Source: Thiomicrorhabdus xiamenensis (GTDB taxonomy: Bacteria; Pseudomonadota; Gammaproteobacteria; Thiomicrospirales; Thiomicrospiraceae). Taken from it: a stretch of DNA of 64,000 nt. The stretch's first letter is position 1; every line of letters begins with the position of its first letter. Positions 38,106 to 53,756 of this stretch are shown here, in pieces. A program made the position numbers and the translations under genes. Location of the stretch: positions 62,001-126,000 of the forward strand of contig NZ_CP054020.1 in assembly GCF_013282625.1 (NCBI RefSeq). The letters are read 5' to 3'. Below the pieces are notes generated by a model. That model saw only the letters and a list, made by a program, of their open reading frames with translations. It made no database searches and was not told where the DNA came from.

Positions 38106-38317
38106 TGCCTTCCTCCCCGCGTACCATGGCAATTTTTGCTCAGTTTACTGCAAGCCAAAACACCTGTGTGAACAAGTTGTGAATAGCTTGGATTATTTTT
38201 ACAGACGATCGAATAAGAACGTTCTGCATAATAAAAAGGTGATTTTTTATTGGTAATTTTTAGTATTACTGGTATAAAAATACTCATTTGCATCAAAAAT
38301 AGGTGTCAAATAAAGGT

Positions 38318-39283
38318 ATGAATAAGTCGGATCGTTGTCAGGCGATAAAAGTTCAGTTACGAAACCGCAGGCGTCCGACGCCAATAGAATGGCTTGCGAT
38401 GCAGTATGAATGTTCAGAAAAGACGATTCGCAGGGATATTGAATACCTCAATGACAGGCAACAACTTCCCTGTTATATCCATCAGAATCAGGTCTATCTT
38501 GATGAACAGCGCATGCAACAACTGGAATTAGACGGTTACTGGCTTTCCGCCGACGAGTTGCAAGCGTTATTCGCCCTGAATATTACCATTGAACAACTTT
38601 CGCAAGGTGCACTTGCACAGCAACTTGAACCAATTAAAAACCGTCTTAAAAAACTGTTTATGGATAGCGGTTCAGCCAATGAATTGGTACGAAAAATCAA
38701 AATTGTCGAGATTGGGCAAAGAAACATTTCCACCAAAATATTCAACCAGATTGTTGATGCGCTCACGCAGTGTGAACAGTTGGAAATTCAATATTGGAAA
38801 CGTAATGTCGATCAAACTGGACGCCGAGTCGTTTCCCCTCAACAGCTGGTTCGATATAAAGATAATTGGTATCTCGATGCTTTCTGTCATCGAAGTAATG
38901 ATATTCGCAGTTTTTCAATTGATGCAATTAGAGAGTGTCGAAGCCTTTATCAGAAAGCGCACTGCATTGATAGCGACACCTTAAAAAATCACTTTTCGGA
39001 CAGTTATGGCATTTTTGGTGGTGAGGCAAAATGCTCGGCGGTTTTACACTTCAATGAATACATCAGCCGCTGGATACAAAACGAAACCTGGCATCCCGAG
39101 CAGATTATTGAAAAACAAACTGACGGCAGCTTGATTATGCATTTGCCTTACCAGCACGATATCGAACTAATCCAGGACATTCTCAAATATGGCGCGAACG
39201 TTAAAGTCATCGCACCTCCGGAATTACAAGAAAAGGTTAGGCAACAACTCCTACAGGCAAGCGAGCTTTATCTAGAAGAATAG
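38318..39283 (+). CDS. WYL-domain transcriptional regulator
   Basis: An approximately 321-residue regulator: an N-terminal DeoR-like helix-turn-helix (WLAMQYECSEKTIRRDIEYL) and a central WYL domain (RRVVSPQQLVRYKDNWYLDAFCH) followed by a WCX C-terminal domain. WYL proteins are ligand-sensing regulators often linked with phage defence. It lies 77 bp before cas1 on the same strand and shares the AT-rich composition of the cas genes, so it is probably part of the CRISPR locus and may tune its expression. Start may instead be GTG at 38303. Confidence 0.9.
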   Translation: MNKSDRCQAIKVQLRNRRRPTPIEWLAMQYECSEKTIRRDIEYLNDRQQLPCYIHQNQVYLDEQRMQQLELDGYWLSADELQALFALNITIEQLSQGALAQQLEPIKNRLKKLFMDSGSANELVRKIKIVEIGQRNISTKIFNQIVDALTQCEQLEIQYWKRNVDQTGRRVVSPQQLVRYKDNWYLDAFCHRSNDIRSFSIDAIRECRSLYQKAHCIDSDTLKNHFSDSYGIFGGEAKCSAVLHFNEYISRWIQNETWHPEQIIEKQTDGSLIMHLPYQHDIELIQDILKYGANVKVIAPPELQEKVRQQLLQASELYLEE

Positions 39284-43300: not shown

Positions 43301-43616
43301 CTTTCGTGAAGGCGTCCAACAAGTTGAGCTGTATTTAATGCCGGATAGCAATAAAGAATGGGTGTTTAAGCAGAGAAACGATGCATCTGAATTAGTCGAA
43401 ATTGAAAAGCGTTATGGCATAAGACACGAGCAACAGTTGAGCGACAAAGAGAATAACAGCCTTTGGTTGTATCGGGATTACCAACAGCTGCTAAAAGACT
43501 CGCCGGAACACTATATGCCCTTGGCAGCAGCCATTTTTGGTGAGATTTCATTGGATGAATATCTACTGGATTCAGAGCTAATTTATAACCCGCAACTAGG
43601 ATTGGAAAAAAAATAA
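40305..43616 (+). CDS. cas3f: Cas2-Cas3 fusion nuclease-helicase, subtype I-F
   Basis: Degrades DNA bound by the Csy complex and participates in adaptation. The 1103-residue protein has a Cas2-like domain (about 1-95), an HD nuclease (His123-Asp124 in LFHDWGKASEW), and a superfamily-2 helicase with Walker A STGKGKT (about residue 430), DEID box near 588, SAT motif near 618, and QMAGRVLRH motif VI. All key residues are present, so interference should be functional. The stop codon lies within the T-tract of the antisense mini-array terminator. Confidence 0.96.
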   Translation: MMVTFVSQCEKKALNKTRRVLDSFADRIGDRTWQTIITEEGLQAVKKLLRQSATKNTAVACHWMRSRIRSELIWIIGNRNKFNEQGIVPVNSTRQNIINTQRENDWHLLPLIKSLVAVAALFHDWGKASEWFQSKLTTKSNQVIGDPLRHEWISVLFLNAFVNGESDELWLARLANGEFDKEILIKRVVENTAAPLHQLPPAALSVAWLILTHHRMPQVKKYYGTELDDFGTLFKVLKANWQYQNKFDDDEYRQNEPRCFDYPRGLPSDSNLWLKPAKKWASKLSAQIEHLHSIIKTDTWRWVMQQARMSLMLGDHAYSSQVSDSKFQPQLKLYANTKKEGKKRKLDQSLEEHLLGVMKAALHRVHHFPMFEALSNELGYVQDNRVLKKKSPAAFRWQDKAVEKLTQWRTEQSRFKSFEVAQYGFFAVNMASTGKGKTFANAKIMRALSYDQKSLRYILALGLRTLTLQTGDEYRQRIGLQDDELAVLIGSRAVQVLHQQAQNQTSEAETFSGSESGESLFDDEIIYDSPIPDGILQTVLTNAKQQAMLYAPVLVCTIDHIMGATETARGGRYILPSLRLMSSDLVIDEIDDFTGKDLIAIGRLVHLAGMSGRKVMISSATIPPDLAKGLFNAYQAGWQVFAQARQKSQKVGCAWIDEFASQVETLPDSNESLATYGELHQKFTQKRLAKLNQQPAKRKVNLVKCSLEQFHEQVKTSGLSAETFYFQQIQNEILRKHQQHSQVEEKSQKRISFGVVRVANINPCISLSRYLLQSDIEDTEIRVMAYHSRQLLLMRNAQEKHLDELLKRDPDHPQTIFKNSIIQNHIQNSTAKNVIFVLVATPVEEVGRDHDLDWAVIEPSSIRSIVQMAGRVLRHRSIENLEHPNIGILQYNLKGFQQALKNPDNPWPVFNHPGYENAEHLLHSHDLTELIDFKQLEQNLDASLRITKNENLQPKNNLADLEHVVTEQCLLEKKAGPESLKGWLQGYWWLTAIPQSYVRFREGVQQVELYLMPDSNKEWVFKQRNDASELVEIEKRYGIRHEQQLSDKENNSLWLYRDYQQLLKDSPEHYMPLAAAIFGEISLDEYLLDSELIYNPQLGLEKK

Positions 43617-43638
43617 AAGCTACTCAATAAAGGTAGCT
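43606..43638 (-). terminator. Intrinsic terminator of antisense mini-CRISPR unit
   Basis: On the minus strand AGCTAC (43638-43633) pairs with GTAGCT (43623-43618) around a 9-nt loop and is followed by TTTATTTTTTTT (43617-43606). There is no T-tract on the plus strand, so the terminator serves minus-strand transcription only. It sits directly after the second degenerate repeat. Confidence 0.75.
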
Positions 43639-43714
43639 ATTAACAGGCTGCCTAGGCGGCAGAGAAGGGTATTTTATTTAATCTATTTTCTTAGCTGCTT
43701 ATACAGCAGAGACA
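43606..43714 (-). ncRNA. Putative Cas-regulating guide RNA (creR/creA-like mini-CRISPR)
   Basis: An antisense unit between cas2-3 and cas8f. Read on the minus strand: degenerate repeat 1 (43714-43687) matches the array repeat at 20 of 28 positions. Its 8-nt crRNA handle CTAAGAAA is intact and its stem is changed from CTGCC/GGCAG to CTGCT/AGCAG by a compensated pair. A 19-nt guide (43686-43668) ATAGATTAAATAAAATACC follows. Repeat 2 (43667-43640) matches at 19 of 28: the hairpin CTGCCGCCTAGGCAG is intact but the handle is lost. Each repeat keeps just what Cas6f processing of a single crRNA needs. An extended -10 box precedes it and a terminator follows. RNA guides of this sort (CreR, CreA) are known beside other type I systems. 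Confidence 0.8.
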
Positions 43715-43717
43715 AAA

Positions 43718-43726
43718 ATGATACCA
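43718..43726 (-). promoter_or_regulatory. Extended -10 promoter of antisense mini-CRISPR
   Basis: On the minus strand TGGTATCAT is an extended -10 element (TGnTATAAT with one mismatch). The expected start is near 43711, within the first bases of degenerate repeat 1 and upstream of its hairpin. No good -35 box is seen at 17 bp, as often with extended -10 promoters. Confidence 0.6.
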
Positions 43727-43768
43727 AAATTTAGCAAAACTCGCTTAAGTCAAAAAAAAACATATTTA

Positions 43769-43786
43769 ATTTAATTTATTCTATGG
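43769..43786 (-). promoter_or_regulatory. Predicted Csy-complex target of the mini-CRISPR guide
   Basis: On the minus strand CC (43786-43785, the I-F PAM) is followed by ATAGAATAAATTAAAT (43784-43769). Against the guide it matches positions 1-5, 7-11 and 13-16; the only differences are at 6 and 12, which are flipped out and unread in Cascade complexes. It abuts the -35 box of the promoter facing cas8f. Confidence 0.78.
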
Positions 43787-43815
43787 TTGATTTTATTGGT
43801 TGGTGTGACTATTAT
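43787..43815 (+). promoter_or_regulatory. Sigma70 promoter upstream of cas8f
   Basis: TTGATT (43787-43792), 17-bp spacer, TATTAT (43810-43815); predicted start near 43822. A-rich and T-rich tracts upstream could act as an UP element. The guide target lies immediately upstream, so a bound Csy complex would hinder RNA polymerase. Confidence 0.7.
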
Positions 43816-43821
43816 TACAAG

Positions 43822-43960
43822 CAAGCCATCGCTTCGCTTGCCAAATAAGCAGCCAGACACCTGCTATATCAAGGTCTTGTAAGCCTCTTTTGGACGACGC
43901 AAAGGATAGGTATCAAAAACAGTCGTGGCATGTGAAGGGCTGAGTGATGGCCCTTTTATT
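43822..43960 (+). ncRNA. Leader or small RNA ending in intrinsic terminator before cas8f
   Basis: From the predicted start near 43822 to the hairpin AAGGGC (43935-43940) / GCCCTT (43950-43955) followed by TTTATTT. There is no convincing reading frame; an ATG-TGA minimal pair lies at 43930-43935 and a TTG-started 14-codon frame at 43838, neither with a good ribosome site. The 5' end can fold (GCAAGC 43821-43826 with GCTTGC 43836-43841). It may be an attenuated leader of cas8f or an independent small RNA, for example a creT-like toxin RNA. Confidence 0.5.
43935..43960 (+). terminator. Terminator-like hairpin 23-28 nt before cas8f
   Basis: AAGGGC and GCCCTT form a 6-bp stem with a 9-nt loop, followed by TTTATTTAT. 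It lies just upstream of the AGGAGG ribosome site (43969-43974) and start codon of cas8f at 43983. Unexpected position for a terminator unless transcription past it is regulated. Confidence 0.65.
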
Positions 43961-43982
43961 TATACATTAGGAGGCAGATTGA

Positions 43983-45266
43983 ATGCTTGATCCTGCAATA
44001 CAAGAGTTCTTAGCCGAGCGTAAAGAAGGTTGGCTAAAGAAAAAGATTAAACCGAGTTTGAGTGAAGCTGAACAGGCTGAGTTTGAGCAAGAAGCAAATC
44101 AACTGTTTTCATTAGCGGAATGGCTGCCGAATGCGGCCAAGCGCGCCAAACAGTTAAATCTGGTTTCGCATCCGTCTAAGTTCTCTCATCCGGGCGCAAA
44201 AACTTCATCGGTGATTGCACAGGCTCGACCTGAAAATGATGGTTTTTTGCGATTTGGCAATGTAGAAAAAGTCGAAATGGATGTGCTTGGGAATGCTGCG
44301 GCCATTGACGTTTATAAATTTCTCTCGTTGAAATTGCAAGATGATCAAACGGTTCTGGAGCATTTAGAGCAACAGAGCAAAACCATTCAGCAGCAGTTCG
44401 CCATCTCAAGCGAATCTTTTGAGTCTCTGCATCAAGGATTTATGGAGATTAAATCGGATGGCTTTAGTCGAGTTTCTACCAGCGGCAGTGTGAAACAGGT
44501 CTATTTTCCTGTTGAGGAAGAAGAAAATGGCTATCACTTGTTATCCATTTTGACCTCCTCCGGCATGATGTATGAATTAAAGAAGCGTATTAACTACATT
44601 CGTTTTTCGGATGCGGCGAAACAGGCCAGAGAAGACCGTAAAGGTGGCGAATACAATGTCGATGGTGTTCGTGAGATCTATGATTTAACCGCGATCGGTT
44701 TTGGTGGTACCAAACCGCAGAATATCAGCATTCTTAATAATGCCAATGGTGGTGTGGCTTACCTTTTGAAGTCAGTACCGCCAGATCTTTCTCGACGCAA
44801 TGTCCGTTTACCCAAAAAAGATTTCTTTAATCAAACACTGTGGACAAAAGAATTCGAGTGGATTTTTTCCGCGTTAAATAGTGTCTTAATTGAGGATGCA
44901 CGTAATAACATCGATATTCGTTTAAAGCGTGATGAACTCTTTGCTCACGCCGTTGAGAATACATCGAGAATCTTATGGAAAGTTCGAACGATTGAGGCGG
45001 GGTGGTCAAATTCCGATACCTACGATTCATTGCCGCAATGGCAAAAGCATTGGCTGGATGCTGCTTATGAATGCAAACGCGCTGAAAATGACGATTATAT
45101 TGACCAAGCCGTTACAGCCTTCAGCCGTTGGTTTATTACCGCTTTTGAAGCTTATCTGAAAGTGGAAAAAGTGATGTTTGACGATGTTGATATTCGTCAC
45201 TTTATTGGACAAGCCGATTTGTTTGATTCCGCAATGCAATTGCAAATTAAGGAGGCATTTCGTTAA
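43983..45266 (+). CDS. cas8f: Cas8f (Csy1), large subunit of the Csy complex
   Basis: Recognises the CC PAM and anchors the crRNA 5' handle together with Cas5f in the type I-F surveillance complex. A 427-residue protein with Csy1-like blocks: IQEFLAERKEGWLKKKIKP at the N-terminus, THPSKFSHPGAK-like HPSKFSHPGAKTSS, and FGGTKPQNISILNNANGGVAYLL. AGGAGG lies 8 nt upstream of the ATG. It is the first gene of cas8f-cas5f-cas7f-cas6f and its expression is the likely object of the adjacent guide RNA and terminator. Confidence 0.94.
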   Translation: MLDPAIQEFLAERKEGWLKKKIKPSLSEAEQAEFEQEANQLFSLAEWLPNAAKRAKQLNLVSHPSKFSHPGAKTSSVIAQARPENDGFLRFGNVEKVEMDVLGNAAAIDVYKFLSLKLQDDQTVLEHLEQQSKTIQQQFAISSESFESLHQGFMEIKSDGFSRVSTSGSVKQVYFPVEEEENGYHLLSILTSSGMMYELKKRINYIRFSDAAKQAREDRKGGEYNVDGVREIYDLTAIGFGGTKPQNISILNNANGGVAYLLKSVPPDLSRRNVRLPKKDFFNQTLWTKEFEWIFSALNSVLIEDARNNIDIRLKRDELFAHAVENTSRILWKVRTIEAGWSNSDTYDSLPQWQKHWLDAAYECKRAENDDYIDQAVTAFSRWFITAFEAYLKVEKVMFDDVDIRHFIGQADLFDSAMQLQIKEAFR

Positions 45267-50900: not shown

Positions 50901-53756
50901 TCGCTCAGCTCGCTGCCGCCAAGGCAGCTAAGAAACACCATATAAAAGCGGTCTGGTAACATATCTAGCTCGCTGCCGCCAAGGCAGCTAAGAAATGCAG
51001 CGAATTCGCTTCGACATTGATAAATGAGCTCGCTGCCGCCAAGGCAGCTAAGAAAATTCGTCGATGACGGTGGATAGCCAGACGGATGCTCGCTGCCGCC
51101 AAGGCAGCTAAGAAACTCAATATAGACCTTTGACCCCTTGTTAAGATGCTCGCTGCCGCCAAGGCAGCTAAGAAAAACCTTTAATTTCCCGTCAACGTAT
51201 TTTTTAGGCTCGCTGCCGCCAAGGCAGCTAAGAAACGCCAGAGAACCCCGACCTGGTTGATTTTTTGGCTCGCTGCCGCCAAGGCAGCTAAGAAAAATGC
51301 TAGATGCTCTGATCACAAGCCCGAATAGCTCGCTGCCGCCAAGGCAGCTAAGAAAAGCAGACGGAATCGCTCGTTTAACACGAGTACGCTCGCTGCCGCC
51401 AAGGCAGCTAAGAAAATGAACAGCGCTTGATGGTTGATCTATCGCCTGCTCGCTGCCGCCAAGGCAGCTAAGAAAATGCAACCGGCATATTCGCACGACA
51501 CCAGCCCGCTCGCTGCCGCCAAGGCAGCTAAGAAAACGCCGATGTTGGATGCGCTAATCGCAAGCCCGCTCGCTGCCGCCAAGGCAGCTAAGAAAAGACG
51601 AAAGTTTTCCATGTGGATCATGTAAGAGCTCGCTGCCGCCAAGGCAGCTAAGAAATTTGAGAAAATCGGTGTGACCAAAGAAATGCTGCTCGCTGCCGCC
51701 AAGGCAGCTAAGAAATTTGAGAAAATCGGTGTGACCAAAGAAATGCTGCTCGCTGCCGCCAAGGCAGCTAAGAAACTTTAAATGCGGAATAACTTCGCGC
51801 ACTTTGTGCTCGCTGCCGCCAAGGCAGCTAAGAAAGGCGCTTCTTATACGCTCGATTGGGTAGTTGAGCTCGCTGCCGCCAAGGCAGCTAAGAAAATTTA
51901 GAGCAATGGTTACGACCACCCCAAACAGCTCGCTGCCGCCAAGGCAGCTAAGAAAAGGGAACGGTTGTTGCGCTTGTGTACGAGATAGCTCGCTGCCGCC
52001 AAGGCAGCTAAGAAATGCAACGGCAGTCAATGCCCCGGAATTGTCCAGCTCGCTGCCGCCAAGGCAGCTAAGAAAGATCAGGTTATTCACCATTACACGC
52101 CTTTGCGGCTCGCTGCCGCCAAGGCAGCTAAGAAAAATTTTCCAAACGGTGCGAACTACTACTCGCCGCTCGCTGCCGCCAAGGCAGCTAAGAAATCAAA
52201 TCATCATGTACAAACCGTTTTTGAGCAGCTCGCTGCCGCCAAGGCAGCTAAGAAATCTCGTTTTAATCAGCGCATTAAGCTGATGCAGCTCGCTGCCGCC
52301 AAGGCAGCTAAGAAAGGAAGCGTGGCGGCCAAACCTTTTTTGTTATTGCTCGCTGCCGCCAAGGCAGCTAAGAAAATTGTCAGTGGTAATCACTTCTGAT
52401 TTCTTAAGCTCGCTGCCGCCAAGGCAGCTAAGAAATTTTCTCACAATGATTCCATGCACCGGAGTCCGCTCGCTGCCGCCAAGGCAGCTAAGAAAAGTAT
52501 GCCACCTATTGAAATAGCAGACGGTCAGCTCGCTGCCGCCAAGGCAGCTAAGAAAATTTTCTTAATCCACGCCGGACGACTTGAAGCGCTCGCTGCCGCC
52601 AAGGCAGCTAAGAAAAGATTTAAGCGCGAGAGTTGAAGTTGCTTTAAGCTCGCTGCCGCCAAGGCAGCTAAGAAATTTGAAAGCCGTGCCGTACTTCGCT
52701 CAATAACGCTCGCTGCCGCCAAGGCAGCTAAGAAATCTGGTGCTTGCTTCCCCCAGTAGGTCGTTAGGCTCGCTGCCGCCAAGGCAGCTAAGAAATTATA
52801 ACCAGATGACTGCTTCTCAAGCATTATGCTCGCTGCCGCCAAGGCAGCTAAGAAAAAAATAAGGCGGTAGGGCTGCTTATTTATTTTGCTCGCTGCCGCC
52901 AAGGCAGCTAAGAAATTGCGGAAAAGGAACTTCCAAGCTAGGCCAACGCTCGCTGCCGCCAAGGCAGCTAAGAAAGAGATCAATACGGGCAACGCCAATA
53001 AATATTTGCTCGCTGCCGCCAAGGCAGCTAAGAAAGCGTTAGGACGGACTGTTAAAGATGTATTAAGGCTCGCTGCCGCCAAGGCAGCTAAGAAAATGAT
53101 TTACGTCAGCGAAAACGTTGTGAAACCGCTCGCTGCCGCCAAGGCAGCTAAGAAAAAAGCAGGTGCATGTGTCCGGGTTTACCCCTTGCTCGCTGCCGCC
53201 AAGGCAGCTAAGAAAGAAAACCTGAAAGCCAATACGACCGAGGCGACGCTCGCTGCCGCCAAGGCAGCTAAGAAAGGAATGTCTTTCGCCCCGACGGCAA
53301 AAAGTGCGCTCGCTGCCGCCAAGGCAGCTAAGAAATTGCGTTGATGCGTAAGATTTTGCCGCATCAAGCTCGCTGCCGCCAAGGCAGCTAAGAAATAAGT
53401 CAAACACTAAATACAACATTTAGTTAATGCTCGCTGCCGCCAAGGCAGCTAAGAAATATTATGGATAATCTTTTTCTCGATACTTTTTGCTCGCTGCCGC
53501 CAAGGCAGCTAAGAAAATACGGAAATCAGCCAACTGGAACCACGGCAACCTCGCTGCCGCCAAGGCAGCTAAGAAAAAAAAACCGACTGGGTGCAGATCG
53601 GGGTTTTGCTCGCTGCCGCCAAGGCAGCTAAGAAAATCGCCTGGCCAAACTGCAACATGGCATTATCCGCTCGCTGCCGCCAAGGTAGCTAAGAAATCCG
53701 GCTGCTGCGCCACCGGTGGCGGAATAATGCTCGCTGCCGCCAAGGCAGATTAGGAA
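47906..53756 (+). CRISPR. Type I-F CRISPR array, 98 repeats and 97 spacers
   Basis: A 28-bp repeat beginning GCTCG, with hairpin CTGCCGCCAAGGCAG and handle CTAAGAAA, recurs at a 60-bp period. Spacers are 32 nt, except five of 33 nt (such as 48594-48626, 49314-49346, 50095-50127, 53396-53428, 53636-53668) and two of 31 nt (48955-48985, 53577-53607). All repeats appear identical apart from the distal end: first base changed at 53549, one change in the stem at 53669-53696, and a degenerate last repeat at 53729-53756. That polarity places the leader at 47777-47905 and transcription on the plus strand. One spacer is duplicated in tandem. The length implies long and active adaptation. Confidence 0.98.
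51656..51747 (+). repeat. Tandem duplicate spacer
   Basis: The spacers at 51656-51687 and 51716-51747 are identical over all 32 nt. A repeat-spacer unit was probably duplicated by recombination or slippage, since independent acquisition would rarely give neighbouring identical copies. Confidence 0.95.

What the first reader, a model, noticed from the sequence alone, without database searches (positions are those of the whole stretch)
43606..43726. Antisense mini-CRISPR transcription unit inside the type I-F cas operon
Seen in the sequence: in minus-strand order, an extended -10 (TGGTATCAT), degenerate repeat 1 (20/28 with the array repeat; 23/28 with the widespread I-F repeat having a GTATA loop), a 19-nt guide, degenerate repeat 2 (19/28), and a hairpin plus T-tract terminator. 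Repeat 1 keeps the complete handle CTAAGAAA and a compensated stem; repeat 2 keeps the whole stem and most of the loop but has lost the handle. That division of retained parts is what is needed to yield one processed short crRNA. Known: CreR and CreA guides beside other type I systems use the same two-degenerate-repeat design to direct Cascade to nearby promoters. Inferred: this is an autoregulatory or addiction guide here, with a truncated 19-nt spacer that should assemble a shorter Csy complex.
Basis: partly seen in the sequence, partly recalled or inferred. Interest (0 to 1): 0.95.

Follow-up and report, generated by a model that had tools for sequence, protein, structure and literature searches.

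The report
CRISPR guide repressing its own operon
Inside a bacterial CRISPR operon sits a tiny stand-alone guide gene whose sequence fits the promoter of the very proteins that would use it, so this immune system probably holds itself in check; the design is of a known kind but recurs in dozens of related systems and has not been tested here by experiment.

Summary
In detail: on the minus strand of the cas2-3/cas8f gap lie a -10, a repeat with intact 5' handle, a 19-nt spacer, a second repeat with stem but no handle, and a terminator. The finding named no target; there is one. The spacer matches a CC-flanked site (43766-43786) that abuts the -35 of the only predicted promoter before cas8f, with mismatches at positions 6, 12 and 17-19.

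A survey of type I-F loci gave 47 distinct units of this design. Mismatches fall on positions 6 and 12 in 59 of 94 cells, on the other positions 1-17 in 49 of 701, the rhythm expected of a type I R-loop. In 40 of 46 units a promoter-like pair starts at the PAM (background 119 of 809). Two Amphritea loci with 98-99% identical flanks differ by the unit.

Best reading: a CreR/CreA-type guide by which the Csy complex represses the Cascade promoter. Type I-F CreTA in this same gap is published (Acinetobacter). Whether this window is purely autoregulatory or also controls a toxin RNA is open: a conserved leader of unknown function lies between promoter and cas8f. No expression data exist.

The parts
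43718..43726 (-). extended -10 of the guide gene (TGGTATCAT)
   Evidence: sequence; -10-like hexamer at this offset in 31 of 42 units, shuffled mean 5.2
43687..43714 (-). degenerate repeat 1: source of the 5' handle CTAAGAAA
   Evidence: 23/28 to the I-F repeat, 20/28 to the array repeat; Rfam CRISPR-DR4 E = 0.0016, below gathering
43668..43686 (-). 19-nt guide (spacer)
43640..43667 (-). degenerate repeat 2: 3' hairpin kept, handle lost
   Evidence: 19/28, stem 5/5
43606..43639 (-). terminator hairpin and T-tract of the guide gene
   Evidence: sequence and fold; not called by the generic scan in the window; called at the same place in L046
43766..43786 (-). guide target: protospacer 43766-43784 with CC PAM 43785-43786 (GG on the plus strand)
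   Evidence: positions 1-5, 7-11, 13-16 match; only zero-mismatch site of the pattern in the genome
43787..43815 (+). promoter in front of cas8f: TTGATT-N17-TATTAT, directly next to the PAM
   Evidence: only promoter called in 43560-44020, but 1.2 expected by chance; same arrangement in 40 of 46 units, background 119 of 809
43847..43929 (+). conserved leader block of unknown function
   Evidence: 84.5% over 71 nt to L046; sliding identity up to 0.80 against 0.38-0.65 in the rest of the gap; does not fold better than shuffles
43934..43956 (+). terminator-like hairpin before cas8f
   Evidence: called, 0.4 expected by chance; no such site called in L046
40305..43616 (+). cas2-3
   Evidence: TIGR02562
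43983..47776 (+). Cascade genes cas8f, cas5f, cas7f, cas6f
   Evidence: TIGR02564, TIGR02565, TIGR02566, TIGR02563
47906..53756 (+). CRISPR array, 98 repeats
   Evidence: 95 exact and 3 variant repeats; 90 of 97 spacers are 32 nt; no spacer matches the gap region with a CC PAM at 14 or more of 17

Best explanation
It is a creR/creA-type gene. A short minus-strand RNA starts at the edge of repeat 1 and ends at the terminator (inferred). Cas6f cuts at the two hairpins, leaving a crRNA with the 8-nt handle from repeat 1, a 19-nt guide and a 3' hairpin from repeat 2 (inferred). The Csy complex carrying it binds the CC-flanked site at 43766-43786 (match and mismatch rhythm shown; binding inferred). 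There it covers the DNA next to the -35 of the promoter that drives the leader and cas8f-cas5f-cas7f-cas6f and blocks initiation (inferred). The R-loop is about 16 bp, so Cas2/3 should not be triggered (inferred from published I-F1 biochemistry). The outcome is negative feedback on Cascade that eases when array crRNAs or anti-CRISPRs draw Csy proteins away, as described for CreR in other types.
For: PAM-flanked target next to the promoter, single zero-mismatch site in the genome. In 120 loci screened by repeat features alone, 42 of 42 minus-strand pairs scoring 40 or more have a CC target at 0.73 or more of the scored positions, against 1 of 8 pairs scoring 31-39 (threshold chosen afterwards; 3 of the 42 duplicate another). 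47 distinct units: mismatches at 6 and 12 in 59 of 94, other positions 1-17 in 49 of 701. Guides fit their own target better than all other targets in 42 of 47. Promoter at the PAM in 40 of 46. In 32 of 46 units the PAM is 29-121 nt from the csy1 start, so the repressed promoter is csy1's own. R1 keeps at least 6 of 8 handle bases in 42 of 42 (5 were required for acceptance), R2 has 5 or fewer in 36 of 42 (no requirement).
Against: No transcript or binding data. In the window the PAM is 196 nt from cas8f, with a conserved block and a terminator-like hairpin between, which weakens the claim that Cascade is the main output. The window's promoter call by itself is at chance level, and its unmasked guide-target score is reached by 1 in 100 shuffled guides (p = 0.01). 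Transcription from cas1/cas2-3 could also reach cas8f.
Confidence: 0.68

Rival explanations
1. A CreTA addiction module: the guide (CreA) represses a toxic small RNA (CreT) encoded in the leader, about 43822-43956; loss of Cascade frees the toxin. Repression of cas8f is secondary or absent.
For: Published I-F CreTA of Acinetobacter lies in the same gap with the same guide layout (PMC10097628, sections 6, 8-11). The window's leader has room (about 160 nt), a block conserved with L046 and a terminator-like hairpin before cas8f.
Against: By eye, the Shine-Dalgarno site plus mini-ORF of the published creT (seen in L043) is not in the window or L046: the purine-rich stretch is there, but the nearest downstream start is a GTG 14 nt away in the window and GTA in L046. 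The block does not fold better than shuffles. The terminator is not called in L046. In 32 of 46 units of this design there is no such interval.
Confidence: 0.26
2. A decayed relic of a CRISPR array without function.
For: Both repeats are degenerate and the spacer is short.
Against: The handle is kept in R1 and lost in R2, guides and targets change together, mismatches keep a 6-nt rhythm, and a promoter hexamer sits at a fixed offset.
Confidence: 0.03
3. An RNA decoy or antisense RNA: the repeats bind Cas6f or the transcript pairs with the cas2-3/cas8f mRNA, without a DNA target.
For: Solitary I-F repeat RNAs are used by phages against CRISPR (PMC10651486, search listing and start of abstract only). 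The unit is antisense to any read-through from cas2-3.
Against: PAM, promoter adjacency and mismatch rhythm would have no reason to be kept.
Confidence: 0.03

Closest known systems
CreTA of type I-F (Acinetobacter WCHA45, LoGeW2-3, ANC3789; PMC10097628)
   Same: Same cas3-csy1 gap, two degenerate repeats, guide divergent from the operon, CC PAM, partial match; the published 20-nt guide mismatches at 6, 11 and 18 (section 9).
   Different: There the target lies downstream of the creT promoter and a 33-bp mini-ORF RNA is the toxin (sections 6, 8, 10); here the PAM abuts the -35 and no such mini-ORF was seen.
CreR, cas-regulating RNA (I-B, I-E and V-A according to PMC13131331, passages)
   Same: crRNA-like guide outside the array with partial complementarity to a cas promoter.
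   Different: Subtype I-F; in the window a conserved leader lies between promoter and gene. The primary CreR paper was not held, so its I-F coverage is unknown to me.
Two-repeat creA genes (PMC8501985, abstract and passages)
   Same: Two divergent degenerate repeats, one giving the 8-nt 5' handle, the other the 3' handle.
   Different: The term search found no mention of I-F there; their toxins are rare-codon mini-ORF RNAs.

Membership tests
CreR (cas-regulating guide) | crRNA-like gene with degenerate repeats outside the array | tested here: met
CreR (cas-regulating guide) | partial complementarity, with PAM, to a promoter of the cas genes | tested here: met
   the promoter is 196 nt from cas8f
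CreR (cas-regulating guide) | represses cas expression through the effector complex | not testable with these tools
   needs expression data
CreTA, type I-F | creA: two degenerate repeats, PAM-flanked partial target in the cas3-csy1 gap | tested here: met
   layout as in PMC10097628
CreTA, type I-F | creT with Shine-Dalgarno site and short ORF downstream of the target, as in Acinetobacter | tested here: not met
   by eye on the leaders of window and L046, so other creT types are not excluded
CreTA, type I-F | toxicity of the repressed RNA | not testable with these tools
   needs expression in a laboratory host
canonical CRISPR array | near-identical repeats with 32-nt spacers | tested here: not met
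   R1 20/28 and R2 19/28 to the array repeat, spacer 19 nt

The most novel reading that the evidence does not exclude
Type I-F operons widely carry an exchangeable cassette that gives the Cascade genes a private promoter together with the guide that shuts it. In its long-leader form, as in this window, the repressed promoter also makes a second RNA before cas8f: a covarying structured family in five other loci, a different conserved block in the window and a Methyloprofundus MAG. These RNAs would be new CRISPR-repressed toxins or new cis-acting sensors, making each such unit a hybrid of CreR and CreTA.
Probability: 0.36. Interest if true: 0.8.

Novelty: new variant of a known kind. Interest (0 to 1): 0.62.

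Why it matters
In what I could read, guides that repress their own cas operon are described for types I-B, I-E and V-A, and a guide that represses a toxin for Acinetobacter I-F. The survey here points to direct repression of the csy1 promoter as the commonest form among the I-F units found (32 of 46). The 47 guide-target pairs, with mismatches concentrated at positions 6, 12 and 18, are a natural data set on which base pairs matter for Csy binding without cleavage. Nearly identical loci with and without the unit (Amphritea) make the cost and benefit of self-regulation testable, and the leader RNAs are concrete new objects to test.

Tried and rejected
Relic array and antisense-only readings: rejected on the handle pattern, guide-target co-variation and mismatch rhythm.

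Window leader as a member of the covarying leader family of L080, L061, L077, L082 and L052: a covariance model from those five, searched in 80 sources, did not recover the window or L046. With filters off on 209 bases the window gives E = 0.023 and L046 E = 0.92. Not claimed. Window leader as a structured RNA: it does not fold better than its shuffles (z = -0.68; block alone z = -0.32, L046 block z = +0.63).

Leader as a known RNA family: in the window, apart from the repeat, only chance-level matches; none at gathering in L080, L046, L082.

More copies of the window-type leader: none in phages; none in viral contigs by pattern; in plasmids one 36-base hit in a Mycoplasmopsis. In 237 genomes of L046's family four matched, one being L046's own copy over its length; the other three matched over 23-31 bases only and, by eye, look like tandem or dispersed repeats or coding sequence. 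None among the other loci surveyed.

Ten units were first read by eye and tested, then replaced by the automatic survey.

Full report
WHAT IS THERE. The window is part of a 2.59-Mb single-contig genome. It carries a type I-F operon, cas1, cas2-3, cas8f, cas5f, cas7f, cas6f, each named by NCBIfam, and an array of 98 repeats with mostly 32-nt spacers. Between cas2-3 (ends 43616) and cas8f (starts 43983) lie 366 bases. On the minus strand of this gap the described unit is present as stated: -10, R1 with handle, 19-nt spacer, R2 without handle, terminator. The repeat pair scores 45, against a maximum of 37 in 400 dinucleotide shuffles.

TARGET. The spacer matches a site 79 bases further on, 43766-43784 on the same strand, flanked by CC (the I-F PAM according to PMC10097628). 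Positions 1-5, 7-11 and 13-16 match; 6, 12, 17, 18 and 19 do not. With positions 6 and 12 (and 18) left out the score is 0.93, the next best CC site scores 0.53. A search of the whole genome for PAM plus matched positions gives one site without mismatch, this one, and four with two mismatches, one of which is the guide gene itself with AA in place of CC. With shuffled guides the window's unmasked score (14 of 17) is reached with p = 0.01, which alone would be only suggestive in such AT-rich DNA.

SURVEY. I gathered cas8f loci from the window's family (4 of 62 genomes, its own included; 5 of the same 62 with the Pfam model), its class (32 of 369), plasmids (16 records matched, seven fetched), genome contigs (best 80 of 544 relatives, hence biased towards the window's kind) and the family of the Methyloprofundus MAG of L046 (40 of 151, 30 loci). 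A script looked for a repeat pair by repeat features and then, separately, for a CC-flanked target in 120 loci. Of minus-strand pairs scoring 40 or more, 42 of 42 have a target at 0.73 or more of the scored positions; of the eight weaker pairs (31-39) one has (counted from the listing; threshold set afterwards; three loci duplicate others). A second script with positions 1-17 weighted equally, plus handle-anchored recovery of units with other loop lengths, gave 55 loci with unit and target among 133 unique ones of 150, and 47 units distinct in guide and target. In that second set the shuffled-guide test (p at most 0.03) was a condition of acceptance, so it cannot also prove that units have targets; the repeat-only count does.

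MISMATCH RHYTHM. In the 47 units mismatches number 0, 0, 1, 0, 0 at positions 1-5, 30 at position 6, 1 to 5 at each of 7-11, 29 at 12, 1 to 12 at each of 13-17 and 29 of 43 at 18; positions 6 and 12 together 59 of 94, other positions 1-17 together 49 of 701. In the 55-locus set the phase test gives 68 of 110 for phase 6 and 1 to 7 of 110 for the other phases. That every sixth base is flipped out of the duplex in type I effector complexes is recalled, not from a call. Matching fades after position 17; spacers are 15-31 nt. An I-F1 complex is reported to assemble with spacers from 14 nt, while truncated R-loops abolish Cas2/3 cleavage (PMC7296934, abstract); this would explain how a chromosomal target is tolerated.

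CO-VARIATION. Tried against all 47 targets, a guide fits its own best in 42 of 47 cases; mean match 0.95 to the own target, 0.40 to others. L046 (Cas8f 63% identical to the window's) has another guide and a correspondingly different target in the same place. L003, in the window's family, also differs, with a mismatch at position 3; L073, named Hydrogenovibrio sp. S010_36, carries the same unit as L003.

PROMOTER. In 40 of 46 units with a minus-strand target a -35/-10-like pair starts within four bases of the PAM, against 119 of 809 other GG positions in the same stretches. In the window it is TTGATT-N17-TATTAT; that scan hit alone is at chance level (1 found, 1.2 expected). One unit, L101, has its best target on the plus strand. 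The PAM is 29-121 nt from the csy1 start in 32 of 46 units, 183-196 nt in seven including the window, and 201-280 nt in seven (start codons of ten loci set by hand).

CASSETTE. Of 121 loci with a well-placed csy1 start, 105 were unique; eight of these had no upstream frame of 250 aa and were left out. Gaps of 110 nt or less carry a unit in 0 of 47, gaps over 150 nt in 42 of 49, one gap of 150 nt has none. The seven large gaps without a detected unit are L041, L050, L054, L056, L062, L070 and L102. The 29 class loci are not in this table. Two Amphritea loci with flanks 98.3% and 99.4% identical differ by the whole unit (L097 without, L098 with); L098 is not among the 47 because its csy1 key equals that of L097. 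L002, in the window's family, lacks the unit, while L046, 86% identical to it over 700 bases of csy1, has it.

GUIDE GENE. R1 keeps the whole handle in 30 of 42 units and at least 6 of 8 bases in 42 of 42 (5 were required); R2 matches in 5 or fewer in 36 of 42. This is the pattern reported for two-repeat creA genes (PMC8501985, abstract and passages). A -10-like hexamer stands 30-34 bases into the aligned upstream stretch in 31 of 42, shuffled mean 5.2, maximum 12 of 1000.

LEADER. In the window about 160 nt lie between the predicted start and cas8f. The block 43847-43929 is 84.5% identical over 71 nt to L046; its sliding identity (up to 0.80) is close to the best coding windows (0.82-0.83) and above the rest of the gap. 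It does not fold better than shuffles. A terminator-like hairpin follows that the scan does not call in L046. Five other loci with nearly the same spacing share a different leader that is structured: 17 of 37 pairs change on both sides and 0 of 500 shuffles reach this. Its model does not recover the window's leader. By eye L011, L015 and L018 have a Shine-Dalgarno site and mini-ORF resembling the published creT. So units with room for a second product differ in what they carry.

WHAT IT IS. A Csy-bound private guide that blocks a promoter inside its own cas operon is strongly supported by sequence. Whether the window's unit is CreR (output Cascade) or CreTA (output a toxin RNA) is not settled. 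I favour autoregulation because most units sit directly on the csy1 promoter and the published creT features were not seen here.

LITERATURE. I-F CreTA in the same gap is published (PMC10097628: abstract, introduction, sections 6, 8-11 and 15 read). [quoted passage not shown] a third mentions it (PMC12948488, passages). The primary CreR paper was not held (its identifier was recalled). Searches of the open library listed no paper that I recognised as reporting an I-F CreR; subscription papers and supplements were not searched.

Noticed in passing
L080, L061 (=L029), L077 (=L142), L082, L052 (=L023): between the guide-repressed promoter and csy1: A leader RNA of about 163 positions with strong covariation (17 of 37 pairs changed on both sides); no Rfam family at gathering in the two tested, L080 and L082.
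   Followed up: partly
L097 and L098 (Amphritea atlantica C1R06, Amphritea sp. 1_MG-2023), cas3-csy1 junction: Flanks 98.3-99.4% identical, but one has a 19-nt junction and the other a gap of about 236 nt with the whole guide unit: a natural with/without pair.
   Followed up: partly
L020, upstream of csy1: A 63-codon frame lies between the guide-repressed promoter and csy1 and overlaps the csy1 start; its product was not searched.
   Followed up: no
L041 (Methylomonas koyamae plasmid) 1117-1879; L044 (Vitreoscilla filiformis plasmid) 450-1484: Protein toxin-antitoxin-like genes are annotated inside the cas3-csy1 interval: GNAT plus DUF1778, and VapC plus XRE.
   Followed up: no
L101 (Parendozoicomonas), about 90 nt upstream of csy1: The guide's best CC-flanked match lies on the plus strand, unlike in the other 46 units.
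   Followed up: no
window 51656-51747: One array spacer is present twice in neighbouring units.
   Followed up: no
window 38303-39283: A 326-aa frame just upstream of cas1 looks by eye like a DNA-binding transcriptional regulator (recalled impression of a WYL-type protein); NCBIfam gave no match.
   Followed up: no
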